Virus record (IMG/VR): IMGVR_UViG_3300023210_000048
Span: 1 to 50,098 of that record
DNA from: a virus
DNA length: 50,098 nt
Direction: 5' to 3' (one strand)
Of this stretch, positions 86 through 38,000 are shown piece by piece (the first letter of the stretch is position 1; every line of letters begins with the position of its first letter). The notes below the pieces were generated by a model. That model ran no database searches. It was not told where the DNA came from and saw only the letters and a program-made list of their open reading frames with translations. The position numbers and the translations under genes were made by a program.

Positions 86-913
86 TTAACCATTACGACG
101 ACGGGACCATGCTTCGCGCATCTTGGCCTTCGTGGCCTCTGATCGCTTTTTACCTTTCGTTGCCGCAGATATCTTGGCTTTGGTTTCATCCGACATGGAT
201 GGCCGTGGATTTGCTACCAGATATGCGGATACCCCATCCTTGATTTTCTGCTTTGTAGCATCAGATCGTTTCAAACCAGTTTGAGCTTTTGCTCTACGCT
301 TAACTATTTCGGGATTTTGCTTCTTACCTTTTTTAGCAACACTAATTTTTGCCTTCTGTTCCTCGCTCATCGGCTTGCCCTTGTTGTGCGCTGGCTTTCC
401 TTTATTTGCAGCAGATATTTTATCACGGGTTGATTGTGACACTTCTACTCCATACCTTCCGTTTAATTTTCCACTAGTATTTGGTAAATTCCCAGATGAC
501 CATGGACGTGTTTTGCCCGTGTTGGCTTCGCTGATCTTTTTCTTGTGATCTTCTGATTTTGGTTTACCTTTATGGAACTCTGATATCTTCTTGAAGTTTT
601 CTTCCGATGGTACAATACCACCTGCAACATTACCGTTCAACCAAACATCCTGTGTTATATCAGCTTCTGTTAAATAATTCTTTTCGTACTCGATTGCTTC
701 TTCGGGAGTATCAAATACCTTATCGATAGATATTTCAAAGGCATCTTTTCCATATTCTTCGATAAGTTGATGAACTTTATCAGAAGAAGTGAAATAGTCA
801 ACCCACAAATCCTGATCAGGAGTCATATGGGTTCTGTTTTTGCTGTACCTTGCGCCATAATAAAGTTGGCCTGTTGGGGTACATTTGATTAAATATGTGT
901 ACGATTTATACAT
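86..913 (-). CDS. GIY-YIG homing endonuclease with NUMOD3 repeats
   Basis: A 275-residue free-standing homing endonuclease. The N-terminus has a GIY-YIG-type core: YTYLIK at residues 5-10 and YYGARY at 18-23. After about residue 105 the protein becomes a lysine-rich series of NUMOD3-type DNA-binding repeats of the form KISEA..GK or SEETKAKISAA.KGKK, at least five copies. GIY-YIG enzymes nick or cut DNA and spread their own gene by homing. The gene lies just downstream of the major capsid gene on the same strand, beyond that gene's terminator and behind its own late-type promoter box (981-995). An AAAGGA ribosome-binding site precedes the ATG. T4 carries the GIY-YIG gene segD in the equivalent place between genes 23 and 24. 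The catalytic family is clear; the target site is unknown. Confidence 0.88.
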   Translation of the reverse strand: MYKSYTYLIKCTPTGQLYYGARYSKNRTHMTPDQDLWVDYFTSSDKVHQLIEEYGKDAFEISIDKVFDTPEEAIEYEKNYLTEADITQDVWLNGNVAGGIVPSEENFKKISEFHKGKPKSEDHKKKISEANTGKTRPWSSGNLPNTSGKLNGRYGVEVSQSTRDKISAANKGKPAHNKGKPMSEEQKAKISVAKKGKKQNPEIVKRRAKAQTGLKRSDATKQKIKDGVSAYLVANPRPSMSDETKAKISAATKGKKRSEATKAKMREAWSRRRNG

Positions 914-10178: not shown

Positions 10179-11159
10179 GTGTCGGACACTTTACCCAAAT
10201 CAACCAAGGATATGTCGCCAGAAGAAATGGCCACATTCATGGCACATATTAATGGACCCCAAGCCGAGCCACAGGTAGCAGTACAACCACAGAACCCACT
10301 ACAAGCATATTTCCGTCATCCAGAGTTGTATATGACACTACCGAGTGGTGGTAGATGGTATCGTCCGGGTGCATTGGACATGCCAGAGAATGGTGAGATT
10401 GAAGTATTTCCAATGACAGCAAAGGATGAAATCCTACTGAAGACGCCAGATACACTACTAAACGGTAAGGCAACCATGAATGTTATCAAGAGTTGTATCC
10501 CTAGCATCAAACAACCAGAGCATATCCCAGCAGTTGATATTGATACTGTATTGATATCCATCCGGATCGCCAGCTATGGTGAAGAAATGGATGTTGATTC
10601 GGAATGTCACCACTGTGGATACAGTAACACCCATGGAATAGACCTACGCAATATGATCGATGGTATCAGATGTCCTGATTATACCCAGCCATTAATAATG
10701 GAAGATGGATTGCAGGTGTTCTTTAAGCCGACCTCATATGGTGAGTCCAATTTAGCTAACATGGAGAAGTTCGAAGAAGAACGATTAATCGCAGCCATCA
10801 CATCATCAGAAACCACTGAAGAAGATAAGATGATACAATTCAATAGATCATTCGAGATATTGACCGATCTAACATTGCGACTTACATTAGACTCTATCAG
10901 TCACATGACCACTCCCGATGGTGCTGAAGTAGTTGACAGGGGATTCATTCAATCATTCTTGGAGAACTGTGGAAGTACTGGCTTCGCGTTAATCAAGGAT
11001 CGTATCAAGGAATACAAGGACATCATTGAGATGAAACCACTAATGATGGTTTGTGGTAATCCTGAACTGGATGAAACAGCAGAGGAAGAAAACACGCTTG
11101 TATGTAATAAACAGTACGAGACACCATTGGTGTTTGATCAGTCCCATTTTTTCGGTTAA
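10179..11159 (+). CDS. 26: Baseplate hub / tail assembly protein (gp26-like)
   Basis: A 326-residue protein of the T4 gp26 (T4 baseplate) type. After a disordered 50-residue N-terminus come LPSGGRWYRPG (54-64), EVFPMTAKDEILLKTPDTLL (75-94), and a metal-binding-type CHHC cluster (C143, C146, with C165 downstream). In this family the zero-frame product acts in hub and tail tube assembly. Its place opposite the tape measure gene parallels the tail assembly chaperones (G and GT type) of other phages. The start is GTG with AAGGAG eight bases upstream. The 3' end carries the heptamer T TTT TTC five codons or fewer before the stop, and the -1 frame stays open for 76 codons. Confidence 0.8.
   Translation: MSDTLPKSTKDMSPEEMATFMAHINGPQAEPQVAVQPQNPLQAYFRHPELYMTLPSGGRWYRPGALDMPENGEIEVFPMTAKDEILLKTPDTLLNGKATMNVIKSCIPSIKQPEHIPAVDIDTVLISIRIASYGEEMDVDSECHHCGYSNTHGIDLRNMIDGIRCPDYTQPLIMEDGLQVFFKPTSYGESNLANMEKFEEERLIAAITSSETTEEDKMIQFNRSFEILTDLTLRLTLDSISHMTTPDGAEVVDRGFIQSFLENCGSTGFALIKDRIKEYKDIIEMKPLMMVCGNPELDETAEEENTLVCNKQYETPLVFDQSHFFG
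11147..11153 (+). promoter_or_regulatory. Probable -1 ribosomal frameshift site
   Basis: The heptamer T TTT TTC is in phase with the gene 26-like frame (X XXY YYZ) and lies two codons before its TAA. The -1 frame has a TGA at 11135-11137, so an extended protein can form only by shifting between 11138 and 11159. Confidence 0.75.
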
Positions 11160-11383
11160 GGCTTTTACATCTAACTAATCCACAGATCGAAGAGTACCTT
11201 GGACTCCTAGATAACGAGATAAAGGCCATAAAGAAGGGATTGCTCAAACATTGCTGGTTCATGCGAGGTGCAATCTCATATACAGAAGCCATGATGATGA
11301 GTTCAATCGAACGTAGGATCATTAGCGAGATCACAGAAGAAAATATGGAGGTAACTAAGGAATCAGGTTTGCCGTACTTCTAA
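11153..11383 (+). CDS. -1 frame extension of the gp26-like protein (gp51/GT-like)
   Basis: A 76-codon open frame that has no ATG, GTG or TTG before its conserved-looking part (NPQIEEYLGLLDNEIKAIKK). Shifting at 11147-11153 would give a 401-residue fusion: 325 gp26-like residues plus a tail beginning RLRLLHLTNPQ. The tail contains WFMRGAISYTEAMMMSSIER and ends ENMEVTKESGLPYF. This resembles, from memory, the C-terminal segments of hub assembly (gp51-type) and tail chaperone extension proteins of T4-like phages. It ends in a convergent stop overlap with the next leftward gene. The fusion is an inference from the reading frames. Confidence 0.7.
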   Translation, partial: RLRLLHLTNPQIEEYLGLLDNEIKAIKKGLLKHCWFMRGAISYTEAMMMSSIERRIISEITEENMEVTKESGLPYF

Positions 11384-11592: not shown

Positions 11593-11614
11593 TATTTTTC
11601 CTTACCTCGAAGAT

Positions 11615-11623
11615 ATATTTAAG
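11615..11623 (-). promoter_or_regulatory. Weak late-type box before the 70-aa gene
   Basis: Reading leftward, CTTAAATAT lies about 23 bases before the start codon. A second similar box (CTTAAATATCC) occurs near 11750. Both differ from the T4 late box at the first positions. Confidence 0.35.
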
Positions 11624-11760
11624 CGATTCCATCAGTAGTTATAGTAAATTATATCTCTATCTCGTTTAGGCATAGCTCTCCATTAAGAAGGAATAGCTTT
11701 TCACCATTCTTTACGTCTTACTCTATAATTCACTCTATTTGAAGGGGATATTTAAGGGGC

Positions 11761-12381
11761 CAGTAAGGGAATATCGCCTCTCCTGACTGTCGAGGAATAA
11801 TAATATTGAAAGATACTCTCTTATATAACTGTTCGTGTAGACCTAGACATACTTCTCCCGTTCTCAGGGAGAAGGTTATGCCAGTTTCACGTTTTCGTGT
11901 GAGCCATGAACATTATAATTAAAGGCGATTCCGAGCATAACTCGGGCGAAGGCGGTTGTCCGTTAACCTTCTACTTCCAGCTTCCTACAACGGGACTGCA
12001 TCATGCCGTAATTACCCAACACGAGTGTTAGCCGGTGGTTGTATCTTTTTCATCAGAGCCACCATCCTTTGTATATTCCCTAAAATTTGCTCGCCAAGCA
12101 TGATCCATAGATACACGGATTTATTCGCCGGTTTTACCCGACATGCGTTCCGTATGACGCCACTTCTATAATATGAGCGGATCGTATATGGGCTTCCCTA
12201 AAGTTTGTAGATTTGCCGCGTACATCGAAAACAGGGTTTTTACATGTGTGGTTCACTCACCTAATACCCGATGTACTAATATTTGCCTGTGCTCCTAAGA
12301 GCTTTTCCCTGAACTTGGTCTCTTTGCCTGTGCTCCTAAGAGCTTTTCCCTGAACTTGGTCTCTTTGCCTGTTTCTCAGTA
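11761..12381 (-). ncRNA. Large structured noncoding RNA (GOLLD/ROOL-like candidate)
   Basis: The 842-base stretch from 11593 to 12434 has no credible gene on either strand. Read leftward from a sigma70-like promoter it folds into many local helices. Examples are GUACAUCG/CGAUGUAC (8 bp, 12273-12222), GCAUG/CAUGC enclosing GUCGG/CCGGC, GGUGG/CCACC, CUAACA/UGUUGG with a CUCG loop, CCGUU/AACGG, CCGAG/CUCGG, CACG/CGUG with an AAAA loop, and a perfect 8-bp CUUCUCCC/GGGAGAAG stem. The final clear hairpin ends near 11761. Length of 600-800 nt, phage origin, a separate promoter and ornate folding suggest the giant GOLLD or ROOL classes. The family name is from memory, and the 3' end is approximate. 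Confidence 0.75.
12282..12372 (-). repeat. Exact 41-bp tandem duplication in the 5' part of the RNA
   Basis: Two identical 41-bp units (12282-12322 and 12323-12363) are followed by nine bases of a third. Each unit, read leftward, contains GCUC UUAG GAGC, a 4-bp hairpin with a 4-base loop, preceded by AAGUUCAGGGAAAA. No base differs between the units, so the duplication is recent or actively maintained. Confidence 0.97.
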
Positions 12382-12388
12382 ATGATTA

Positions 12389-12418
12389 AGTATAGCGAAT
12401 CTTTAGGGGTTGAGTCAA
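12389..12418 (-). promoter_or_regulatory. Sigma70-like promoter of the structured RNA
   Basis: Reading leftward, TTGACT (12418-12413), 18 bases, TATACT (12394-12389). The predicted start is near 12381. It begins 17 bases past the stop codon of the upstream GIY-YIG gene. The 18-base spacing equals that of the gene 47 promoter at 18677-18648. Confidence 0.72.
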
Positions 12419-12434
12419 GAAAAAGATTCACTTT

Positions 12435-13397
12435 TCATCCTCTTTCCCATTTGAACCCTTTAGACGATATCTGCCTACCATGTATTACTGCACTGGCATC
12501 GGCCCCCAATTTTCTCTTTGCCTCGGCATTGGAAGCAAAGTACTGTATAAAATTACCATCCATATCTAACTGCTTAATGCGGTGTTTGGAAGTTGGGGCG
12601 AATGTTCTACCGAAGCGAAACCCCCACCCCGAATAATCATCAAAATCGCACGGAAACACATGAACCGATATATCCCCGTTGGTCATCCAACGTTTGGTAC
12701 TGGCGGCTTTATCGCTGGCCACCCGAGCGTTGGTGACGGTCAAAGGTAACCGCCCCTTTGACCACCCATCCATGATATATTGGTCAAGTTCATCTGGGAG
12801 TATGAATTTAGATTCTATCCCGTTATTAATGTGAATTCTCTTTACTCCACTATTCACACCGACAACTAATCCATTAATTACATCTGGATGTGACATCTTA
12901 AGTTTCACTATATTTCCATACGAATCTTTGTACATGGATTTACCAACACATGCATTTTTCATTTTTAATTTAGTGGCTTCACTGATTGGAGTCGTTGTGT
13001 ATTTCTTACCACCTATACTTTCGTTGTAATATGTCCTATCTCCTTGATCAGTGACACTATGAATAACATCATGCTCCCATTGAAGTTCTACCTCGGCTGA
13101 ATTAACTTGGCCTCTGGTGCGGTGATATGATACTATTTCTCGTTTGAAATTATCAATGCCCTCGTTCTTAATTGCCTCATGGAGAAATAATGAACTTCCC
13201 CAATAGGTTTTCCAATCCGATTCCGACCGCACTCTTCGTTTTTTACCTTTGACTTTTTGTAAACTCCAGAAGTACTTTCGCCCAATATATCGCTTGTTTG
13301 ATGTTAAATTGGTGATAATATACACAAAACCCTCATATTTTCTAAGTTCATCTTCGGGAGGAGAATTCACCCATGCATCGCCATCTTTGTACTTCAT
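12435..13397 (-). CDS. GIY-YIG homing endonuclease with C-terminal NUMOD1
   Basis: A 320-residue endonuclease. The GIY-YIG core is GFVYII (23-28) and RYIGRKYFW (36-44), followed by SDWKTYWGSS, FKREIVSYH and AEVELQWEHDV, which supply the expected Arg/His/Glu positions. A middle segment (KRIHINNGIESKFI...LDQYIMDGWSKG) is of a type common in phage endonucleases. The C-terminus (IKQLDMDGNFIQYF.SNAEAKRKLG...GFKWERG) is a NUMOD1-type DNA-binding module. The ATG at 13397 is chosen because AGGAA precedes it and a late box (13433-13425) lies between it and a possible upstream ATG at 13499. The gene sits immediately upstream of the structured RNA promoter. Confidence 0.9.
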   Translation of the reverse strand: MKYKDGDAWVNSPPEDELRKYEGFVYIITNLTSNKRYIGRKYFWSLQKVKGKKRRVRSESDWKTYWGSSLFLHEAIKNEGIDNFKREIVSYHRTRGQVNSAEVELQWEHDVIHSVTDQGDRTYYNESIGGKKYTTTPISEATKLKMKNACVGKSMYKDSYGNIVKLKMSHPDVINGLVVGVNSGVKRIHINNGIESKFILPDELDQYIMDGWSKGRLPLTVTNARVASDKAASTKRWMTNGDISVHVFPCDFDDYSGWGFRFGRTFAPTSKHRIKQLDMDGNFIQYFASNAEAKRKLGADASAVIHGRQISSKGFKWERG

Positions 13398-13424
13398 TAT
13401 GTGTTCCTGTGGTATGGTCGTGTT

Positions 13425-13433
13425 GTATTTATA
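13425..13433 (-). promoter_or_regulatory. Late promoter of the GIY-YIG gene, inside a small hairpin
   Basis: Reading leftward, TATAAATAC is a full late-box match. It lies between 5-bp inverted arms CGTGT and ACACG (13437-13419). Confidence 0.68.
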
Positions 13434-13487
13434 CACGATCACAACAAAGGAATAGTATTGAAAAATTTGATAATGGGTAAATAGAGT

Positions 13488-14747
13488 ATGAAGATTCAAG
13501 AACTCATAGAGCCAATCGAAGAAGCATCATTCGGATATTCGAACAGCAAAGCGAAAGATGCCGTGGCATTCTATGGCAAAGCCCGCCAATCGATCCCCGG
13601 TGTTGTGGTATTCAATGATCGCGCCGGAAGTCACAGCATGCATGAGGCAACTATGTATACTGTTGCCGTCATCAAACCCAAATTAGCTCACAAGAAATAC
13701 ACAAAATATCGTCAATTACTACAGGGCGGCGACCTAAGTTATATGGACGCGAAAGAGTACGACAAGCTTGAAACATATCTGGACAACATACTTGTTATGT
13801 CCACCAAAAAAATAGGTGATCCATTCTGGTTGAATGATTACCCAGACGTTGCTAAAATTCATATGTTCACTGATCGTGCGAAGTTCTTCAAATTCATGAC
13901 AACTGATCTCGGAATGCCATTAGCTTCCTTTACTAAATTCTTCGGAGAAGAACCAGAGGATCACACTGAGTTTGAACAGTTCCGTAACATCCGTGTGTTT
14001 TTCCCTGACAACATTCAAAAGAACAACAAGAAGAAAATGCTGGGAATGTTAGCTGATTTCGACACGATGCTGAGTGCACATGGACTGAATTATCTGTTCG
14101 ATGCCACCGACATCATGTTTACCCGACTATCCGGAAAAGTTGTTGGCAAGTATATGCCATCCACGAAGGACATCCGGATTAAACCACTGGTGAAATCGTC
14201 TCACACTATCGTACATACAATCATTCATGAATACGGTCACAAGATGTGGTATGAGTTCATGCCAGACAACATCAAACGAGAAATCATTGGACAGTTCTCA
14301 GAGGTCCGTAAAGCAGGGCACTCGTACGCCAGTACATCTGATCTAGAATCTCGTAAGGACGAGCTTTTTAGTGAATTGAAAGTTGGCATGCAAGTTGATT
14401 ACAAAGGACGTAAGAGAGGCTATAAACAGGCATCGCCCTTCCTCGTTCATACCATTGAACCATCAGGTAAAGTCAAATTATCATCACATCAAGACCCAAA
14501 CCAGCCATACCTCAGTGGACCTGTCGGGTTTTTGTTGAACAGTCAATGGTCTATTCCAGATGTGAATACAGATTACCAAAAGTCCAACGATCATGTTGTG
14601 AAATCAGAATGGTTCCCTAGTCACTACAGCCAGACAGATGCCGAAGAATGGTTCTCTGAGTTGTTCGGGTATTATATTCTTGATATGTTGCAGGGTGAAC
14701 CTGCGGAATGGATGGCGAAGATATTACGTCACGGTAAACCACAGTAA
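13488..14747 (+). CDS. Putative zinc metallopeptidase (HEYGH motif)
   Basis: A 419-residue protein with a zincin signature, TIIHEYGHKMWYEF, with HExxH at residues 247-251 (H247, E248, H251). A downstream acidic segment DAEEWFSELFGYYIL (about 383-398) could supply the third zinc ligand. The N-terminus MKIQELIEPIEEA is of a type common in phage virion or injected proteins. It stands alone on the plus strand between two leftward genes and is followed by its own terminator. Possible roles are cleavage of a host or virion protein; the substrate cannot be told from sequence. The motif is clear, and the enzymatic activity is inferred. Confidence 0.75.
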   Translation: MKIQELIEPIEEASFGYSNSKAKDAVAFYGKARQSIPGVVVFNDRAGSHSMHEATMYTVAVIKPKLAHKKYTKYRQLLQGGDLSYMDAKEYDKLETYLDNILVMSTKKIGDPFWLNDYPDVAKIHMFTDRAKFFKFMTTDLGMPLASFTKFFGEEPEDHTEFEQFRNIRVFFPDNIQKNNKKKMLGMLADFDTMLSAHGLNYLFDATDIMFTRLSGKVVGKYMPSTKDIRIKPLVKSSHTIVHTIIHEYGHKMWYEFMPDNIKREIIGQFSEVRKAGHSYASTSDLESRKDELFSELKVGMQVDYKGRKRGYKQASPFLVHTIEPSGKVKLSSHQDPNQPYLSGPVGFLLNSQWSIPDVNTDYQKSNDHVVKSEWFPSHYSQTDAEEWFSELFGYYILDMLQGEPAEWMAKILRHGKPQ

Positions 14748-15550: not shown

Positions 15551-17623
15551 TTATAGCATGACCTCGACCTCATCACCATAGGTCGTAAATTCGGATTCTT
15601 TGGTGACCATCAACACGTTATTAACGTTTGACATCAACTCTTCTTTGTGTGATATCAACCACACACTCTTACCACGTTCTCTTGCGAACGTCTTCAGAAC
15701 TTCAAGGGTATATTGTACCCCTTGTCCATCCATCCCTGTATCCAGCAATTCATCAACGAACACTAAAGAAATTGGCTCATACAAATTCTCGTACACATCT
15801 CGGAATGCCCAACTGAGACTCATAACCAACCGGTTACGCTCACCACGCGATAGATTGCCGAAATCCTTCTCCCGACCAAGCTTGGTGATCTCCACACTCA
15901 AATCATTCTTGAACACCACCTGATGTGGTAGTCCAGTTTTCTCTAAGTATGAATCTAATCGTGTGTTCAAGAACGCAAGGTTCTGTTCCACAATCTGTTT
16001 ACGAATGAAACTATCCTTGTTCACCAGAAGCTTCAATAAGAACTCCTGATGATCTTTCAACGCTGTCATCTCATCGAGCTTATCGAAGCTGACTTCTTCC
16101 AATGCGGCTTCTGTCATCTCATTGATCTGTTCAGTGTAAGGATCGGGTTCGTCGCTTAATTTAATAAGTTGCTTCTCGCAGTGCGTAACTGAGACGCGAT
16201 GTTCTGTCGCCTCAGATTCTTTCGAGTAAATCGTGGTTGGGGGAACGTCTCCAAAAACTCTGTGTACAAACTCAGGGAGAGTATGCTCAACAATACTGCC
16301 TCGGACGATGATAGATTCATCGGGCCTGTCATTCTCCAATTTGGCGTCGAACTCGTCCACGATGGGTTCCCCGACCGTGGGTAGTTCATACTCTTTCCGC
16401 TTCCTCGCACAGTCTTCTTCCAGCGACACGCGGGTGTCAGCATATTCCTTGATTTTTTCGTCATCATGTACCTCTTGACCACACTCAGGACATTTGTTTT
16501 CCAATGCGGTGGTGTGTTTCTCCATTGCGGATTGGAGTTCTCGCTCAAGATGATCTAATTCTTTTTTGAGAGCAGCATGCTCTCGTTGTGATTCTTTGTA
16601 TTCACGTTGCTTATCATTCTCCGCACGTTCATGCTCTTCGCGCTTGCGCTCATGTTCAGCAACTGCCTCATTGTAATCTCGTTGTTGTTCTTGAACGGCA
16701 GCATCGAAGGTGCGTTGTTCTTCTCTGACTTCTTCATCGTATGCACGTGTGATCTCTTTCACAACGTCCTGATGCTCACGATATCTATCATCCTCGGCCA
16801 ACTCATGTTGTAGTGCCTTGGCTTTATGATCAGCCAATGCCACATGTGCCTTCAGTTCAGCTTCGATGTCAATCTCATTGAGTTCTTCGAGAAGCGTTGC
16901 TACCTCATCAATGTCCTTGTTGTGTTGTGTAGTCCATACTGATTGCCTACGTTTAAGGCCATCGATTTGTTCTTTGATCTTCTCGTTAGCTTCGCGCAAA
17001 GCATTCACTCGATGCTCTTCGGCTTGGATATCGCCCTTGGTTTCTTTCACCAATGCTTTCAGTTCCTCGGCCTTATCACTTAACATAGTGATACCAAGAA
17101 GCTGTTCAATGATCTCTCGTTGATCTGCCGCCTTCATCTTCAGGAAAGGTTCGTTCTCAGAACTCAGCACAATGATGTGCTTAAACATATCATATGACAC
17201 ACCAATGACGTTGTTGATCATCTGTTGGGTTTCTCTCGAATCCCCTTGCGATTCGTCTTCGGAAATTTCGTTCTCGTCAGCGGTGAACTTCAGAACATTC
17301 GGCTTACGGCCACGTTCAATATGATAAGACACTCCATTGACTTCGAAGTCAACCGTCACCAACATATTCTTTTTGTTGATGTCATTGATCATCATATCAA
17401 CCTTCTTGATTGGTGTCAATGGTTGACCATACAACGCATAGCACAGTGCATTAACGATAGTGGTCTTGCCTGTACCGTTACGTGCGCTGGCATCATCACC
17501 GCCTTGATCAAGGTTTTCGCCTAGGACTAAGGTCAAATCGTTGTTCGAGAACACTATGGCTTGGGTTTGTGAACCCACTGACATAAAGTTCTTGACGGTC
17601 ATGTGGTTAATGGTTGTTGTCAT
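15551..17623 (-). CDS. 46: Recombination endonuclease subunit gp46 (Rad50/SbcC-like)
   Basis: A 690-residue ATPase subunit of the phage Mre11-Rad50-type complex, which resects DNA ends for recombination-dependent replication and helps degrade host DNA. Walker A is ARNGTGKTT with K53, on an unusually long preceding loop (LDQGGDDAS). A long coiled coil spans about residues 185-370 and resumes after the zinc hook CPEC (C378, C381). The C-terminal ATPase half has the signature LSRGERNR near residue 600 and a Walker B VFVDELLD near 625. Its ATG overlaps the gene 47 stop as ATGA, which couples the two subunits. Confidence 0.95.
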   Translation of the reverse strand: MTTTINHMTVKNFMSVGSQTQAIVFSNNDLTLVLGENLDQGGDDASARNGTGKTTIVNALCYALYGQPLTPIKKVDMMINDINKKNMLVTVDFEVNGVSYHIERGRKPNVLKFTADENEISEDESQGDSRETQQMINNVIGVSYDMFKHIIVLSSENEPFLKMKAADQREIIEQLLGITMLSDKAEELKALVKETKGDIQAEEHRVNALREANEKIKEQIDGLKRRQSVWTTQHNKDIDEVATLLEELNEIDIEAELKAHVALADHKAKALQHELAEDDRYREHQDVVKEITRAYDEEVREEQRTFDAAVQEQQRDYNEAVAEHERKREEHERAENDKQREYKESQREHAALKKELDHLERELQSAMEKHTTALENKCPECGQEVHDDEKIKEYADTRVSLEEDCARKRKEYELPTVGEPIVDEFDAKLENDRPDESIIVRGSIVEHTLPEFVHRVFGDVPPTTIYSKESEATEHRVSVTHCEKQLIKLSDEPDPYTEQINEMTEAALEEVSFDKLDEMTALKDHQEFLLKLLVNKDSFIRKQIVEQNLAFLNTRLDSYLEKTGLPHQVVFKNDLSVEITKLGREKDFGNLSRGERNRLVMSLSWAFRDVYENLYEPISLVFVDELLDTGMDGQGVQYTLEVLKTFARERGKSVWLISHKEELMSNVNNVLMVTKESEFTTYGDEVEVML

Positions 17624-18642
17624 GATTGCCCTAATTTCAGATAGATGCTCAACAGTTGGTCTTTATCGTACTGTTCGCTATCTATGTTTGTTAACTGTTT
17701 CACTACGATCTCATCAACTGTTTCGAAACTGATGTCACCCTCGAACTCATGTTCGGTGATATCTTCCTTGGATGGGATGAACACCAGTTCACGGAGATCG
17801 TACTGATTGATCATCTCTTCCTTCAGGAAGATTGACTCTTCGTATGTCATTTCGATATCGATGGTACACCGTGCATATGTATTCGGTGAGAGATATTTGT
17901 CTGGGTCTTCTTCAAGGTCAGACATTTTAAATACGCGATACTTGGGAGCGTCGGGCCATGACTTGTGAGTAATGTCACCTCCAAACTCTAAAATTGTTAT
18001 GCCCCGTTCGTCATCCCAAGCATCACCGTAATTGTGTGGGAACGCATTCCCGATGTATGTAATGTTCTGCTGTGTCTGTCGTTTATGAAAGTGTCCTGAG
18101 AACACGTGTTGAACGTTAGCCAAATCTTCCTGCTGGAGTTCTCCGGTGTCTGGCATACGGACAGCCGCATTCATCAAGAAGTATGGCAACTCGAAGTGTC
18201 CAAAGATGTAAGTCGATGTGATCTTCTTGAGTTCTTTATGATCCTCGCCGACCAACCATGGAGTGAAGGTAACATTGCCCTCGGTATAGAAGTCGTTCAT
18301 GATCTCTACGTTTTCGTACTGGGATGCCCACTTCAATGAATGGATATCACGTCGATCTTTGTAATAGATGTCATGGTTGCCGGGAATAAAGAACACCCGC
18401 TTGAATGCTTTGGATAGTTTACCCAATGCTTCGATGCTGTAATTCAACGTAGCGATATTGATATTCGATCTAGTGTTGTGCCAATCTCCCGTGAAGATAC
18501 AGGTATCACACCCCTGTGTTTCTGCTTCGGAGATCGCCCAATCAATGAAATCGGAACAGTCTTTATTATGTGTGTGACTGTTCCCTTTGTATCCAAAGTG
18601 GAGATCAGTGAACACCATCGCTTTGTCGAATAAGTTATCCAT
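17620..18642 (-). CDS. 47: Recombination endonuclease subunit gp47 (Mre11/SbcD-like)
   Basis: A 340-residue metallophosphoesterase nuclease, partner of gp46. All phosphoesterase motifs are present in order: TDLHFG (D13, H15), TGDWHN, PGNHDIYY, FGHFE and SGHFHKR. The dimer binds two metal ions (usually manganese) and cuts DNA 3'-5' and at hairpins. T4 has the same gene order, 47 then 46. A sigma70-like promoter (18677-18648) lies directly upstream, within the 3' end of gene 55, and no late box is seen, so expression is probably early or middle. Confidence 0.95.
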   Translation of the reverse strand: MDNLFDKAMVFTDLHFGYKGNSHTHNKDCSDFIDWAISEAETQGCDTCIFTGDWHNTRSNINIATLNYSIEALGKLSKAFKRVFFIPGNHDIYYKDRRDIHSLKWASQYENVEIMNDFYTEGNVTFTPWLVGEDHKELKKITSTYIFGHFELPYFLMNAAVRMPDTGELQQEDLANVQHVFSGHFHKRQTQQNITYIGNAFPHNYGDAWDDERGITILEFGGDITHKSWPDAPKYRVFKMSDLEEDPDKYLSPNTYARCTIDIEMTYEESIFLKEEMINQYDLRELVFIPSKEDITEHEFEGDISFETVDEIVVKQLTNIDSEQYDKDQLLSIYLKLGQS

Positions 18643-29034: not shown

Positions 29035-32000
29035 GTGGCACGTAGAACAGTCAATTTTTTACCTAACTTTTACCGAACTGACGCAAACGAAAAATTCCTG
29101 AACGCAACTCTGGATCAACTAGTTAGCGAACCAAACCTGAAAAAGGTTGGTGGATACATCGGTCGTCGGGACGCTAGTACGTTTAAAGCAGGAGATAGTT
29201 ATATCTCCGAGCCATCAGCGGCACGTACGAATTATCAGTTAGAACCGTCTGTGATCTCGAAGAACAGTACCACAGGTAAGATAGAACATATTGGTATATA
29301 CACTGATATGATCAATCGTATCAAATATCATGGTGGCAACACAACCAACCACGACATTTTGTTCAACAACGAATACTATGGCTTTGGTGAAATCATCGAT
29401 ACAAATAAGTTAGTGAACTTTAGCCAATACTATTGGCTGGCTGATGGACCGGACGTAGTTGATATCTTTACAGGTTCGATAGACCTCACCAAAGACTTCA
29501 ACATAACACGCAACGCAACTGATCAGAATTATACAATACTCGGCGAAACTGGTATAAATCCTGAATTGATTCTGGCACGTGGCGGAACATATACCTTCAG
29601 GGTAGCTCAAGATAGCAATAACTTTTGGATTCAAACAGAACAGGGCATTGATGGACAACTAGATACTTCACCGAATATCAGCACTCGTGAAGTGTTTGGT
29701 GTGACAAACAACGGCGACGATGTGGGCGAAGTAACCTTCACTGTGCCTGAAAATGATGCCCAAGATGATTTCGTGCTGATGACAAAGGTAGATGATGTTA
29801 ATTTAGCAACAACTATTCCATTCAAGGATTTGGCCAACCAAACATATGATAACCTTATCACTAACTACGGCGGCATTGACGGCCTTCAGAACATTGATGG
29901 TAAAACTATGGTGTTTGTTGGTGATTTTGTTGAGTCAGATTGGCAAGCAGAAGGCATCTTTGATTTAGACCCATTTGATCAAATCGATTTCGACCAAACG
30001 CAAAACATTCCAGTGGCACAACGCACCGCGATATTCCGTATCACGTTGGTGAGTAATGGCGACACAGAAGTGGTTCGTATAACATACGAAACTGACATTC
30101 CACAAGAACAAAAGGTAACGGTCACCGAAGGTGATGTGTACTCCAATCGTGAAATATGGCATGACAACTTCAATAAGCTTGACCTTGTTCCTATTATCAC
30201 TGCGAACCTTAATGTACTGTATTACCACGATGAAAACAATGCATTACTGACAGGTGTTATTCGTCTAGTAAACATCGCCGAACCATTGATAATCGATATT
30301 GAGAATGATATTTTGGGTAAGCCATTCTACACTGCGCCAAATGGGGTTGTGTTCACTAATGGTCTTAAGGTTAAATTTGACTCATTCGTGATCTCATCGA
30401 CCTACGTGAACAATGAATATTACGTGGAAGGAGTGGGTGACAGTATCCGCTTAGTCGATGTGAGCACACTGACCATCTACTCGGCAGAACCAGCGGATAA
30501 AAACTATTTCACTATCAATCGTTCAAGTCCAGACGGCAACCAATGGTCTCGTGAGAACCGATGGTTCCATGAACAGGTGATTCAAGATACTGCCACATAC
30601 AATAAAACCACCTTCACTGTGGACCAATCTGAAAGAGCTACACGTCCTATTGTGGAATACAAACCTGATATCAAATTATTCAATTATGGTTATACACAAA
30701 GAGGTGTGGTTGATTTAATCGATACAATTGAGGTCGATGCGCTTTCAAATTTCAACGGATCATTCGGTGGGTATATCGATGGTGTAGTGGTTACTGATGG
30801 AATGTCCGTGATCTTCTCTGCGGACACAGACGCAACAGTGGTTAATAAAATTTACCGCATCGACTTTGTTGACCCACAAAAAGACAGTGCATTAGAAGTT
30901 CAAATGGTTGAGATCGGTACTGTCGTTGATGGTGATGTGGTAGTGGTATCAAATGGTCTTTCCTCTATTGGGAAATCGTACTGGTTTGATGGCACTGATT
31001 GGTCATGGGGCCAGCCAAAAACTACTGCAAACCAAGAACCATTGTTTGATGTATTCGACCAAGATGGAAACAGCTTCGGAGAAATCTCCGTGTATCCGTT
31101 GAGTAGTTTCGTTGGATCAAAATTAGTTAGCTATGATCGCGGCACCGGAAACAACGACGAGGTTCTCGGCATTCCGATAGCACACAGAAACATCAATAAC
31201 GTTGGTGATATTTTGTTCGAAAATTATTTCGAAACAGATACCTTCGTGTATCTGAGCAATGACACCAGCACCACTCGGGTAATTAACGATGGATTTATTA
31301 AAAAATTCAGTAGCCCAACAGCGTACACTCGACTGAATATGTGGTCTAAGGTTAAAGAAGAAACTGCCCAATTCCAATCGTTTTCATACATATCTGATGG
31401 CGGCTTCGATTACGGAATTGATCAGGAACCCAAAGCTCACTCACTGAACAACATTAAGGTTTGGGTGGATAATGTATATCAGACCAATGACAAATACACC
31501 ATTGAAAATGTAAGCGACACGTGGATTGTTCGTTTCGTAACTGCACCAATATCATTGGCCAAGGTGGACATCAAGGTGTATGCCGCCCTACCAATTGCAT
31601 CGTCATATTATAACATACCGGATAACCTAAATCTAAACGCATTGAATGACACCCTTAGTGAGTTCACCTTGGGCCAGCTTCGAAATCACGTAACAAAAAT
31701 CGCAACAAATGTTCCTGATTTTTCTGGTACCCAACCTGGTAACAACAATCTGCGCGACCGTCTGTATCAAACATCGGGCGGCACCATCTTGCAGCACAGT
31801 GCGCCATTGACCTTGCCACTAACCCTGTTGACTGACCCAATAAACGATATGATTGAGTCTCTACGATACAATCAATTGACGTACGAAAATTTCAAACACA
31901 TGCTGATTGATAAAATGTTCAGTATGGATATTGTTGGGTTATCGTTCTCGGATGCAATCGATGCAATTCTAGAAGAGATTGATGAAATCAAAGATGCGTC

Positions 32001-35000
32001 ATTCCCTTTCAACTACACTGACATGATAGCCCACGGCAACGATGTCACCTTAAACACATGGACTGTTGTTAACCCGAATGATAAAGAATATGAATACGGC
32101 ACCATTCTAGACATGACGGTCGCCTCGAATCGTGGTGTACTTGTATACCTAAACGGTGTTCAATTGTTCCACGAACGTGATTACACTTTCTTGACGACAA
32201 GATCGGCAATTAAGGTAGATACCTCAGTGACCTTGGCATATGGTGACACGATTGTTGTTAAAGAATACGACAACACAGATGGAAGTTTTGTGCCAGCGAC
32301 CCCTACCAAGTTAGGAATGTGGCCTAAGTTTGAGCCAGAAAAGTTCACCGACGATACATACGTCACACCTATTGACGTGATCAGAGGACACGACGGAAGC
32401 ATAACTATTGCATTCGGCGATTTCCGTGATGACTTGTTATTAGAATATGAGACCCGCGTATACAACAACATCAAGACTACGTTTGATACCTCGCGTATTG
32501 ATTTCACTGATATTGTTCCGGGCAAATTCCGCAACACCGAGTTCACGTTGGCCGATGTGAATAACATCCTCGGACCTAATTTCCTGCAATGGACAGGCGC
32601 ACACCATTTGAACTTCACAACACAAACTGGCTTCAACTCTTCAGATAGGTTCACGCTGAATTATAGTGAGTTTGGTGATCGCATTGATGGAGAGCTTCTG
32701 ATAGGAAACTGGAGAGGTATCTATCGATATTTCTATGACACCGAACGCCCACACACCCATCCATGGGAGATGCTGGGACTGACTATCAAGCCAACTTGGT
32801 GGAACACTAGATACGGTCCAGCACCATACACCTCTGGTAACTTGGTTCTATGGAATGATTTGAGAGATGGTAAACTATATACCGATGGCACCGGATCAAC
32901 ATACTCAGTGTTGGCCAATTACACACGTGCAGATTTGCTAACAGTCATTCCTGTTGATACCGTAGGAACATTACTATCGCCATTGGAGTCTATTGTCAAG
33001 AACTTTAATTCCACCTTCGTACAACAACCTTATGAATTTGGCGATGTCGGACCAACTGAGAGCGCATGGCGCAGATCAAGCATGTATCCATTTGCTATGC
33101 AGATGGTGTATGCGCTTACGCAGCCAGCAAAATTCTTCGGTCTGAATATCGATATAGATGAATACTCTTACGATACTGCGTATGGACAATGGGTAACCTC
33201 CGAGGGTAAACGTTTTGTGCTGTCCGACATCACAGTATCGGGCGAAACCATTAATGGAGTGATACAACGAAACCATTCATATTTGACATGGATCGCTGAT
33301 TACATAACCAACTTAGGATATGATCGCGGAACACAGCTAGGTGATAGATTACGAGATATGACACTTCAGTTATCATACAAGATGGCTGGCTTCAGTGATA
33401 AGAAATATCTAAAAGTGTTAGCCGAGCACAACGCCCCCGACACCTCTAACACAGCCCTGTTCGTGCCTGACGAAGATTATAATGTATCGCTATTCAAAAC
33501 AAAATACATCGATAAAATAACATTGAGTGCGATCATTGTCGAAAAGCAAACCAATGGATGGTCGATCTCTGGATATGATACCAAGAATCCATTTTTCACT
33601 ATCATTCCTAGTATCGAAAACAGCAACAATTATGTCACGGAAGTGGGTAGCCAGCGCGGTATCATATATCGTGATTATGCGCAATCCACGGCCACTGTAC
33701 AATACGGTCATGAATTCAAATATCCACAAGATGTGTTTGACTTCTTGATTAGTTACGGTAGATATTTGGAAAGTTTTGGTTTCATCTTTGACGGATCAAT
33801 TGGTGATGCTAGAAGTTCGGTTGCCAAGGACTGGGTATTGGCTGGGAAAGAGTTCTTATTCTGGTCCCAACAGGAATGGGCAGCAGGGTCGGTGATTGCA
33901 TTATCTCCGTATGGCTCTGAAGTAAAACTGTCTCGTCTTGACAAAACCATTGTAGATGAAATTCATAACAACAGCTTTTCTTCCCGCGTATTGGATGTGA
34001 ACTTCAACACCTTAAGAAACGAGGACTATCTTGTCAAGCGTATCGATAATGTGTTTGAATTAAAGATTTTGAACGATGCCCCTATTGGGCTATTGGACAT
34101 CAGTACTGCACAGTTTGAACATGTTCTTGTTTTCAACAACATCACTGTATTCAATGATGTATTGTTTGAACCAGCATCTGGTAACAGACAAGATCGTCTG
34201 AAACTTATCGGGTACAAAACGTCTTGGAACGGTAATCTATCCGCGCCAGGATTTATATACAATGAAGACAACATTTTAGAATGGGCAAAGCTGACTGATT
34301 ACAAGAAGGGTGATCTAGTAGAATACAAAAGCAAGTTCTATTATTCCAAGGCAGACGTAATTGGCTCTATTGATTTCAACTTCGCGGAATGGCAAAACGT
34401 TCCCGCCAACGAAATAAAAACTGGATTGTTGCGTAACCTATCTAGTTCAGCAGCAGAGTTTGCAGGGTTTTATGATACCGATATAGTCAATCTTGAAAAC
34501 ACAACGGACATCTTCGGCAAAGGCTTGGTCGGGTATCGCAACCGTGATTATTTACGTGATCTTGGCTTGGCTGATGTATCGCAAGTAAAATTCTATCAAG
34601 GTTTCATCAAAGAAAAAGGTACCAAAAATGCGTTGAACAAATTGTTCCGTGCTAAGTTGGAACAGTTCAGTGGTGAGATTGATATCTTTGAAGAGTTCGC
34701 GTTAAAATCGGGATCATATGGCGCGATTGATATTCGTCAAGAAATCGAAATTGAATTGCCTGAAACAACCTTGACTGCGAATCCAAACTTGGTGGAATTT
34801 CTAAATGAGGGTGATCCATATCCAACTGGACGACAGGGATATCGAAAATCTGACATATGGTTATTGCCAGATACTTATACCAAAAATGTATTCCCCAATC
34901 GTGCTGCAAAAAATGCATCAGGCACGGTGGACCAGTTCTACAAGAACAGTTTACAGTACGCTGGTTTCCCTCGTCTTGATGACGTTGACGCAACCGTGTT

Positions 35001-38000
35001 TGATCTGTCAACCATTGCTACCGATCTAAATGCATCTATTGATAGCATCGGCGCAGGTTATATCATTTGGGTAGCGAACGATTATCGATCTGTGTGGAAT
35101 CTGTTTCGAGTATCTGAGACCGAAATCACTCTCGGAACTATAACCGATAATGGCGACGGCACAAGTACCATTACGACCAATGAACAACACACGATTGGTG
35201 AATATGATACGGTGTTGATTAAAAACTTCTTGGGCACAGTAGATGGATTTCATAGAGTAACAGCAACCTCCAACCCAAAGACATTCATTGTCGATGTCGA
35301 TTCATCTGCCTTCACCACAACAACTGGTGACGGTTATATCTTGAAACTTGAATCAGTTAGATTCCTGAATACATCAGAGTTCGCCGCCTTCACCCCATTG
35401 TTGGGTTGGAAACAGACCGAGACCGTATGGTTAGAGACAAACGCAGACGGCAAATGGGAAACCTTGCAGAAAACTGAAGTGTGGTCATCTAGTGATAACA
35501 TCGATCCAACAACACCCCTTGTGAATTCCGAATTTGGTCACATAGTAGAGTCATCGGTTGACAACTCCTTCGTTTATGTAGGCTCGCCAGCAGATACCAC
35601 ATCTGATTATGTATCAGGGGAAGTACATGCGTATATTCGAGATATAGAGAATGGTGGTTATGCCACGTTGTTTAATATCAATGCCAAAGTACTCAGTGCC
35701 GCCGAATATGGCACAGGACTGAGCGTTGCGGGAGACCGTGTGTTCATGGGTGCTCCTGGAACACTAACCGAGCGTGGCATCGTTGTTCTCGCCGAACGTT
35801 CCGAGGTTCAGTACCCTATTCATCAGGTATTAGTTGCTTTCGATCAAAGCACAAGTGATCGCTTTGGTGAAACCATTAAAGTAAGTACAGATGAGAGATG
35901 GTTATACGTGGGTGCTCCGACCGCCAACAAAGTTTACGTGTACCAGCTTGACGACTCACTTTACACCACAAGTGAATCCTTCACAGGTGACGGCAGTACC
36001 GCCACATTCACATTGAGCACAGTTCCAGTAAGCGATGAAGACGTAACTTTGACCGGCACCACTTCGAGTTTCACTACAGACGGCGCAGTAATCACATTGG
36101 CCACGCCACCCGCTGGGGCATTCAGTGTTCAACAAACTAATGTAGTTGGGGTGTCGCAAACATTCACAGGTGACGGCAGCACCGCCACATTCACGTTGAC
36201 TGGCGTTAATGTATCACCGAAAAGCATTTACCATTTATTGATAACAGATACGGCCACAAATAAAAGTTTACCGTTCATTGACTACACACTGAGCGGCAAC
36301 GTTATCACATTCACCACTGCACCCGCAGTCGGAACATTTACGGTAGCTCAAAATGACGCATACGTGTATATAACTACATTGGATGGCGCACCAGAGGCAA
36401 CCGTGAATTCTAATTTTGGTTACAGCATAGATTGTACCAGTGATGGAGCATCCATCTACGTCGGATCGCATCTTCATGATGAAGGCGCAACCACTGACGC
36501 CGGTTCAGTATGGGTTTACTCAAGAAGCATTGAGGCATTTTCTACAATGTCTAACCAGTTGGATTTCGAATTAAATCGCGTCCCTGCCGGAAACATTCGC
36601 GTAATGGTCGATGGGGTTGCGCAGACCGAAGGCACGGAATATAACCTCGTTGTCGGACTGGACGGCAGCACCTTGACTCGTGTTCGCTTTGAATCAGACC
36701 AACGCCCGAATGAAGCATCTAATGTGTCTATCGAAACCAATGCTTTCCTTCTAAATCAACGTATAGAATCGCCAGTAGCCAAAGTTGGTGGCCATTTTGG
36801 TTGGGATTTATCCTCTTGTACAACGGATTGCTCTGTGTATATCGGCGCACCTAATGCCGATACGGGGGAAATTATCGACACTGGTAAAGTATATCGATAT
36901 GGTAACCAATCTAGATTATATGGAACAATCACAGGTACCACTACCGCACCGACAGTGACTATCGGGCATTCGTTGAGAATTAACAATTTTGAAGTTGTGT
37001 TCACTGGAACCACATTGACCAATGTAATAACAGATATCACCAATAAAGATATCGTTGGCATCACCGCATCTAATGTTGGCGATCAATTGGTGATCACTGC
37101 AGACTCCACCATTAACGGAAATCTATTGCGCATTGATGTTGGGCTGGGTACTGGTATGTCTGATCTGGGTCTTATAAACTATGTATTATTACAGACCATA
37201 TCGCAACCAGCAAATAAAAACAAGTCACGTACTCGCTTCGGCCATAGTCTTGACGTAGGTTCTGATGTCTTGGTAATCTCCAGTAAAAATTCAGCAGCCC
37301 ACAAAATAACAACATTCGATAGCGATGGCACCTATTTCGATTCTAAATCCACCGTGCTCATTGATGCAGAATCCAATTCAGGTGCTGTGTATGTGTACGA
37401 ATTAAAAGAAACGGCCAATGCGTCGATCACAAACGCTGGCTCATTCGTGTTCTCTGAAGAATTAGAGTCCTCCGTGGTTACGGACGATGATCTGTTCGGG
37501 TTTGATGTTCACATGAATGATGGGTATATCTATATTGGTTCCCGTGACGACGATACCGATTCAATAACCAACAGTGGGCGAGTAGTAACGTTCCGTAATT
37601 GGAGCGGGAACAAAGGGTGGGCAATCCTTAGATCAGAGCCAGACCTAGTAGATGTGAAGTTGATCAACAACACATATATGTATAACAAAAGCACCAGACA
37701 GAAGATTGTCGATCTTGATTTCATCGATCCATTCAAAGATAAGCATCTCGGATCGGCAGAGGAAGATATTACCTTCAAGACAGTGTACGATCCCGCACGA
37801 TATAACAATGGAACGAATGCAAATGTACGAATTAGCACCACGTTACATTGGAGTGATGTGCAAGTAGGACGTATTTGGTGGGACTTGAGTACTGTTAGAT
37901 ATGTATGGTATGAGCAAGGCGATTTGACCTACAAGTTGAACAACTGGGGCCAAGTATTCCCCGGCTCAAGCATTGATATGTACGAATGGACAGAATCCAA

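What the first reader, a model, noticed from the sequence alone, without database searches (positions are those of the whole stretch)
11761..12434. Large ornate phage RNA with its own sigma70-like promoter
An 842-base gene-free stretch in an otherwise packed phage genome reads leftward from a TTGACT-18-TATACT promoter into a series of local helices, several with 5-8 perfect pairs and tetraloops. Size, phage setting and folding suggest the GOLLD or ROOL giant RNA classes, known in phages and prophages and reported to form multimeric cages. If so, a T4-like phage would carry one between tail and DNA-repair genes, controlled by host-type sigma instead of the late sigma. The helices are read directly; the class name is a recollection, not a search result.
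Basis: partly seen in the sequence, partly recalled or inferred. Interest (0 to 1): 0.92.

Follow-up and report, generated by a model that had tools for sequence, protein, structure and literature searches.

The report
New widespread structured phage RNA family
The gene-free stretch encodes a large folded RNA shared by many aquatic giant T4-like phages and probably by jumbo phages of Pseudomonas aeruginosa; it is not one of the catalogued giant RNA classes, and it carries a puzzling 7-letter 'address' twice, identical within each RNA but different between phages.

Summary
The 842-base gap (11593-12434, minus strand) carries a conserved structured RNA. The same RNA lies in the same place (between the gp46/47 recombination genes and gp26/gp51) in more than 100 uncultivated T4-like phage contigs. 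Covariation is decisive: 283 double-change cells against 94 +/- 8 in shuffles, 88% paired against at most 54% when slid, including a 6-bp pseudoknot. G-U pairs fix the strand. A model trained without the window finds it at 88.6 bits (E about 1e-21). Rfam has no match for the window: it is not GOLLD, ROOL, HEARO or an intron. In a subset of relatives the 5' domain is Rfam's Polynucleobacter-1 RNA (RF01718), so that motif seems to be one domain of this larger RNA. The sigma70-like promoter is no better than chance. New and unexplained: the 3' domain holds a 7-8-nt unit twice, flanking a hairpin, identical within each RNA but different between phages (about 25 versions; ACACGAA in the window). 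No cis partner was found, so I infer a trans partner. The upstream gene slot holds unrelated DNA nucleases, probably Holliday-junction resolvases. A probable member in P. aeruginosa phages Cassandra/PA5oct makes it testable.

The parts
11593..12434 (-). gene-free interval holding the RNA gene (transcript ends not determined; RNA probably about 12434 to about 11750)
12092..12434 (-). 5' domain, long and divergent in this phage; in relatives L143, L136 and L051 this position is occupied by RF01718 Polynucleobacter-1; no RF01718 match here
12282..12363 (-). perfect 41-nt tandem duplication inside the 5' domain
11902..12091 (-). conserved pseudoknotted core (covariance model match 88.6 bits with a model trained without this sequence)
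12034..12063 (-). signature hairpin GGUGG-CUCUG-AU-GAAAAAG-AUA-CAA-CCACC; near-invariant loop, covarying stem
11987..11991 (-). 5' arm (GUUGU) of the pseudoknot following UCCCG/UUCCG
11955..11959 (-). 3' arm (ACAAC) of the pseudoknot, in the loop of the GAAGG...CCUUC hairpin
11948..11971 (-). hairpin GAAGG-UUAACGGACAACCG-CCUUC (family consensus GGGGG...CCUCC)
11931..11945 (-). hairpin CCGAG-UUAUG-CUCGG (variable but paired helix of the family)
11894..11900 (-). first copy of the lineage-specific 7-nt unit (ACACGAA), after CUC
11852..11874 (-). 3'-domain hairpin CUUCUCCC-UGAGAAC-GGGAGAAG followed by UAUG
11832..11838 (-). second, identical copy of the 7-nt unit (ACACGAA), after UCU
12435..13499 (-). 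SegE-type GIY-YIG nuclease gene (PF19835) directly upstream; occupies the nuclease/resolvase slot
15551..17623 (-). gp46-like recombination subunit (PF13476 AAA_23)
17620..18642 (-). gp47-like nuclease subunit (PF00149 Metallophos)
10179..11159 (+). gp26-like T4 baseplate protein (PF12322), converging on the RNA

Best explanation
What it is (shown): a conserved phage-encoded structured RNA, about 430 nt in typical relatives and up to about 700-800 nt here, encoded on the minus strand at the end of the recombination operon (sigma55-gp47-gp46-nuclease-RNA) and meeting gp51/gp26 head-on. It has a variable 5' domain, a pseudoknotted core with a near-invariant CUCUG/GAAAAAG/CAA hairpin, and a 3' domain in which one 7-8-nt unit stands twice around a GC hairpin, after CUC and after UCU. 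How it works (inferred): the RNA acts in trans as a folded scaffold. The invariant core hairpin docks a common factor or an RNA partner. The two identical, lineage-specific units present the same short sequence twice to one nucleic-acid partner in the infected cell (a host or phage RNA, or exposed DNA) that differs between phage lineages, which is why both copies change together. The adjacent nuclease is most likely the phage's Holliday-junction resolvase, sharing the operon rather than acting as the RNA's enzyme. Sub-claims: conserved structured RNA 0.97; acts as an RNA in trans rather than as a cis element 0.7; units pair with one trans nucleic-acid partner 0.35.
For: Covariation: 33 pairs in 39 sequences, 88.2% paired, 283 double-change cells against 93.6 +/- 8.2 (0/500 shuffles), slid controls at most 53.5% paired. 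Pseudoknot 98.2% paired with up to 6 pair types. Strand: 224 G-U against 23 A-C cells, 88.2% against 72.1% paired on the other strand. Leave-out model R2: window 88.6 bits, bacterial L225/L259/L265/L266 41.6-60.1 bits. Fold z -4.24 for relative L077. Unit repeat: CTC(X7)...TCT(X7) occurs 88 times at the expected place and only 6 times elsewhere in 5.5 Mb of both strands, 5 of those 6 being divergent RNAs of the same locus; about 25 different units. No partner of the unit in cis. RNA persists when the upstream gene is GIY-YIG, PD-(D/E)XK, endonuclease VII-like or something else.
Against: No transcript data were available. The trans partner is unknown, and a 7-mer is too short to search for. A protein with changing specificity, a tertiary contact between the two copies, or a DNA-level role could also keep the copies identical. 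The bacterial copies examined do not show the unit pair (L225, L265, L266; L259 not examined), so the unit may be a phage elaboration. The RNA directly follows a nuclease gene in 104 of 136 contexts, so a role in that gene's mRNA is not excluded.
Confidence: 0.6

Rival explanations
1. A self-assembling 'ornate' RNA (nanocage or oligomer) working like GOLLD, ROOL or OLE, with the paired units as assembly contacts.
For: Phage setting, size, pseudoknots, variable plus conserved domains; the published classes are homo-oligomers of unknown function (PMC12286853).
Against: No Rfam match to those families; no neighbouring tRNAs; the two units are identical and mostly non-palindromic, so they cannot pair with each other, and no complement was found in the RNA.
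Confidence: 0.18
2. A cis-acting 3'UTR element controlling stability, termination or translation of the upstream nuclease mRNA or of the convergent gp51/gp26 transcript.
For: The RNA begins right after the nuclease stop codon in most phages (distance to the core mostly 93-200 nt); no conserved promoter between them; terminal hairpins specific to the RNA end lie at a convergent gene junction.
Against: Over 400 nt with an invariant loop and a pseudoknot is far more than a terminator or UTR element needs; the nuclease is replaced by unrelated genes, inverted, or absent while the RNA stays.
Confidence: 0.14
3. RNA partner (guide or scaffold) of the adjacent nuclease, analogous to IscB/TnpB with omega RNA; the unit would be the guide.
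For: GIY-YIG or PD-(D/E)XK gene directly upstream on the same strand in 104 of 136 contexts; in unbiased loci nearly every strong GIY-YIG hit is followed by the RNA or a divergent version of it; in Alsobacter soli a large serine recombinase ends about 100 nt before the core.
Against: Three or four unrelated nuclease folds share one RNA core; the slot holds annotated Holliday-junction resolvases in isolates (RusA-like in Cassandra; 'Holliday junction resolvase' in Phosso) and an endonuclease VII-like gene in L051, so shared synteny of a recombination operon explains the pairing; some RNAs have no nuclease next to them.
Confidence: 0.1
4. A template for DNA synthesis or a recombination site: identical direct repeats bracket a copied or exchanged segment (telomerase-like, DRT2-like, or a tyrosine-recombinase overlap).
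For: Concerted short direct repeats are what such templates and crossover sites show (general knowledge, not tested).
Against: No reverse transcriptase (PF00078) in 13 viral records up to 347 kb or in four bacterial genomes with the RNA; the bracketed segment is only about 50-67 nt; strand-specific G-U pairing shows RNA-level selection in the core.
Confidence: 0.04

Closest known systems
Polynucleobacter-1 RNA (Rfam RF01718; Weinberg et al. 2010, PMC2864571, listed there for Burkholderiales and fresh water/estuary)
   Same: Its 141-nt model matches the 5' domain of relatives L143 (91.5 bits), L136 (38.7) and, below cut-off, L051 (21.3), directly upstream of the core described here.
   Different: RF01718 covers only that 5' domain; it does not include the core, the pseudoknot or the 3' unit pair; the window's own 5' domain does not match it. 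The one Burkholderiaceae genome hit (L274) has RF01718 without the exact GAAAAAG signature.
GOLLD and ROOL (giant ornate phage/prophage RNAs)
   Same: Large, pseudoknotted, phage-encoded, no known function; for GOLLD, a conserved 3' part with a variable 5' part.
   Different: No model match; not next to tRNAs; the core and the concerted unit pair are not matched by the Rfam models of these families.
IscB/TnpB omega RNAs (HEARO and relatives)
   Same: A structured RNA adjacent to a nuclease ORF.
   Different: Nuclease folds are GIY-YIG, PD-(D/E)XK or endonuclease VII-like; no Rfam match; nuclease not obligatory; transposon ends were not looked for.
Group I intron with GIY-YIG homing endonuclease (T4 td type)
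   Same: GIY-YIG gene next to a structured RNA in a T4-like phage.
   Different: No group I or II model match; the RNA lies between genes, not inside one; its place among the neighbouring genes is conserved across the clade.

Membership tests
GOLLD / ROOL | match to the family covariance model | tested here: not met
   cmscan at gathering and at E<=5/10: no GOLLD or ROOL
GOLLD / ROOL | often encoded near tRNA islands | tested here: not met
   0 tRNA genes in the window; 1 tRNA, over 3 kb away, among 45 related loci
GOLLD / ROOL | homo-oligomeric nanocage | not testable with these tools
   needs cryo-EM or mass photometry
Polynucleobacter-1 (RF01718) | model match in the window | tested here: not met
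   no hit at E<=10 in 12060-12400
Polynucleobacter-1 (RF01718) | model match in related RNAs, adjacent to the core | tested here: met
   L143, L136 above cut-off, L051 below
Group I / group II introns, HEARO | Rfam model match | tested here: not met
New phage RNA family described here | signature hairpin GG-CUCUG-N(1-2)-GAAAAAG-N(0-3)-CAA-CC with covarying stem | tested here: met
   window 12034-12063
New phage RNA family described here | pseudoknot between (U)UCCG-NNNNN and the loop of the GGGGG...CCUCC hairpin | tested here: met
   GUUGU/ACAAC in the window
New phage RNA family described here | CUC-X7 ... hairpin ... UCU-X7 with identical X | tested here: met
   ACACGAA twice
New phage RNA family described here | synteny gp47-gp46-nuclease-RNA-(gp51, gp26) | tested here: met
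RNA-guided nuclease system (omega-RNA like) | obligatory RNA-nuclease pairing with a guide | tested here: inconclusive
   adjacency frequent but nuclease types unrelated and sometimes absent; guide target unknown

The most novel reading that the evidence does not exclude
A new class of phage RNA that carries one exchangeable 7-8-nt address twice on a conserved scaffold: a bivalent guide-like RNA whose target co-evolves with the phage lineage, widespread in T4-like jumbo phages, with a few copies in bacterial chromosomes near recombinases.
Probability: 0.3. Interest if true: 0.93.

Novelty: new variant of a known kind. Interest (0 to 1): 0.82.

Why it matters
Giant ornate phage RNAs are a long-standing puzzle with few classes and no known function. 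This adds a widespread class with a new internal signature (concerted unit pair) that gives a concrete handle on function, shows that an orphan Rfam motif (Polynucleobacter-1) is one domain of a bigger RNA, and points to a probable member in cultivated P. aeruginosa jumbo phages, so the function could be tested directly.

Tried and rejected
GOLLD/ROOL/HEARO/intron identity: rejected by Rfam scans. Sigma70 promoter: not above chance; T4 late promoter TATAAATA not enriched upstream of the RNA. Thermodynamic windows: uninformative. A repeat-derived pattern (GGCAAANNNACNAANTTNAGGGAA) hit only coding DNA, and the AGGCAAAGAGACCAAG pattern gave loci with only short matches. blastn of several members against 50,697 phage records found nothing: family members in isolates are too divergent. 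Most genome contigs motif hits are chance (gap lengths spread over 0-3; low CM scores). Reverse-transcriptase template idea: no RT found. Cis partner of the unit: none. Bacterial spread: 1 of 398, 1 of 299 and 1 of 401 sampled genomes, the first two being the seed genomes and the third a weak 26.8-bit hit, so very rare in chromosomes. Literature: no description of this RNA found in the held library; most subscription papers and bioRxiv preprints are not covered.

Full report
1. The place. The window is a 50,098-base virus record from a T4-like phage: gp20-type portal (PF07230), major head protein, prohead protease, gp26-type baseplate protein and gp46/gp47-type genes at 15551-18642. Its gp26 relatives among isolates are jumbo phages: Atu_ph07, Phosso, Cassandra, PA5oct, Munch. 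Between a 70-aa ORF (ends 11592) and a SegE-type GIY-YIG gene (ends 12435, minus strand) lie 842 bases without a gene.

2. Is the structure real? Folding energy alone would not have shown it: z = -1.70 on the minus strand, -0.10 on the plus strand, and 150-nt windows no better than coding controls. The decisive evidence is comparative. Loci fetched with the portal and gp26 proteins gave blastn matches to the RNA at the corresponding place and orientation. Their alignment showed a motif, GG-CUCUG-GAAAAAG-(AUA)-CAA-CC, with covarying flanking stems. The allowed gap of 0-3 bases was only 0 or 3 in viral hits, while in bacterial genomes it was spread over all values, as chance would give.

3. Covariation. 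In an alignment of 39 cores, an unsupervised search for covarying column runs returned the same helices and, as the top signal, a pseudoknot between (U)UCCG-NNNNN and the loop of the GGGGG...CCUCC hairpin. With the structure named, 88.2% of cells pair, 27 of 33 pairs have changes on both sides, and there are 283 double-change cells against 93.6 +/- 8.2 in shuffles (0/500); slid structures pair at 40-54%. G-U cells outnumber A-C cells 224 to 23, so the folded molecule is the minus-strand RNA. A covariance model trained without the window and without the bacterial copies finds the window at 11902-12091 with 88.6 bits, E about 1e-21. The 5' and 3' domains have covarying helices too. Relative L077 folds with z = -4.24.

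4. Known family? No match in Rfam 15 for the window at gathering thresholds and nothing relevant at relaxed thresholds for the window or L077. Among 15 further loci, L143 and L136 match RF01718 Polynucleobacter-1 directly 5' of the core, and L051 does so below cut-off. RF01718 is listed in PMC2864571 for Burkholderiales and fresh water/estuary. So RF01718 is the 5' domain of a subset of this RNA; the window's 5' domain is of another, longer type with a 41-nt tandem duplication.

5. The concerted unit pair. In the 3' domain a unit X of 7-8 nt follows CUC, then comes a GC-rich hairpin, then the same X after UCU. X is identical within an RNA but differs between RNAs: AGATAAT, ACATGAT, GGATGAA, GAATAAT, ATAGCAG, GTCGGAA, ACGAAAT, and ACACGAA in the window. 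The pattern CTC(X7)...TCT(X7) occurs 88 times at the expected distance from the core and 6 times elsewhere in 5.5 Mb (both strands). Five of those six lie in divergent RNAs at the same locus (L026, L032, L035, L038, L040) and one looks like chance. Loci L032 and L035 have lost the signature loop, and L038 is not found by the core model at all, yet all keep the unit pair, so this may be the most durable part of the molecule. I looked for a complementary partner in cis with exact 7-mers, 5-mers along the alignment and covariation, and found none. Identity maintained through change means both copies answer to one partner. I infer a nucleic acid acting in trans; this step is not shown.

6. The neighbour gene. 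Directly upstream, same strand, lies a GIY-YIG gene in 90 and a PD-(D/E)XK gene in 14 of 136 contexts; the rest are contig edges, inverted nuclease genes or other genes. L051 has an endonuclease VII-like gene there (PF02945, E 3e-4, below the curated cut-off). In isolates the slot is annotated as RusA-like resolvase (Cassandra) or Holliday junction resolvase (Phosso). Unrelated junction-type nucleases in one slot of a recombination operon (sigma55-gp47-gp46-X) argue that X is the phage's resolvase and that its closeness to the RNA is synteny. This is an inference. It lowers, but does not exclude, an RNA-guided nuclease.

7. Isolates and bacteria. In the 288-kb genome of Pseudomonas phage Cassandra the signature CUCUG-GUA-GAAAAAG-AU-CAA occurs exactly once, at this locus and on this strand. 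R1 and R2 give it 11.6 and 9.9 bits, weak by themselves but placed by synteny. Eleven P. aeruginosa phage records including PA5oct share the region at 99.5% or more. The Cassandra region folds with z = -2.9 and the corresponding Phosso gap with z = -3.5. Four bacterial genomes carry single copies (Endobacterium, Marinicaulis, a Pseudomonas, Alsobacter), three of them near serine recombinases and one near an Abi_C gene. Sampling 398, 299 and 401 genomes of related groups found only two of the seeds plus one weak hit.

8. Verdict. The finding stands and is enlarged: a new, widespread class of large structured phage RNA, neither GOLLD nor ROOL, with an unexplained concerted unit pair. Function is unknown; a trans-acting scaffold with a doubled address sequence is my best reading, and each inferred step is marked as such.

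Noticed in passing
window 11173-11383 (+): A gp51-like reading frame (LTNPQIEEYLGLLDNEIKAIKK...MEVTKESGLPYF) follows gp26 but shows no ATG, GTG or TTG start; unusual start, recoding from gp26, or a sequence error.
   Followed up: no
window 29035-42912 (+): A single open frame of 4625 aa, by far the largest in the window.
   Followed up: no
window 86-913 (-): A second homing-endonuclease-like gene (phrog_314) next to the major head protein; Cassandra also has one annotated at the corresponding place.
   Followed up: no
L143:1132-1276, L136:2580-2729: Rfam RF01718 Polynucleobacter-1 is the 5' domain of a subset of this RNA, so the Rfam family is probably truncated.
   Followed up: partly
L274:1306-1443 (a Burkholderiaceae genome): RF01718 at 92.3 bits in a bacterial contig without the exact GAAAAAG signature downstream; the 3' continuation is different or very divergent.
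   Followed up: partly
L038:5950-6480: A GIY-YIG gene followed by a structured-looking RNA that the core model misses but that keeps the CUC/UCU unit pair (GCATGAAG) and the terminal hairpins.
   Followed up: partly
L277:11240-12230 (Sinorhizobium phage Phosso): A roughly 1-kb gene-free, strongly folding gap (z -3.5) at the syntenic position beside a Holliday junction resolvase; probably a very divergent relative.
   Followed up: partly
L225, L265, L266, L259: Single bacterial copies of the RNA core, three of them near serine recombinases (a 612-aa large serine recombinase ends about 100 nt before the core in Alsobacter soli), one near an Abi_C gene.
   Followed up: partly
L207, L211: A 40-50-nt insertion in the variable helix after the CCUCC arm (CTTAATGTTAAGTCAAAGTAACATTAAC...), absent in close relatives.
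   Followed up: no
L038:15844-15914: Rfam freshwater-2 motif (RF02980) in a related phage contig.
   Followed up: no
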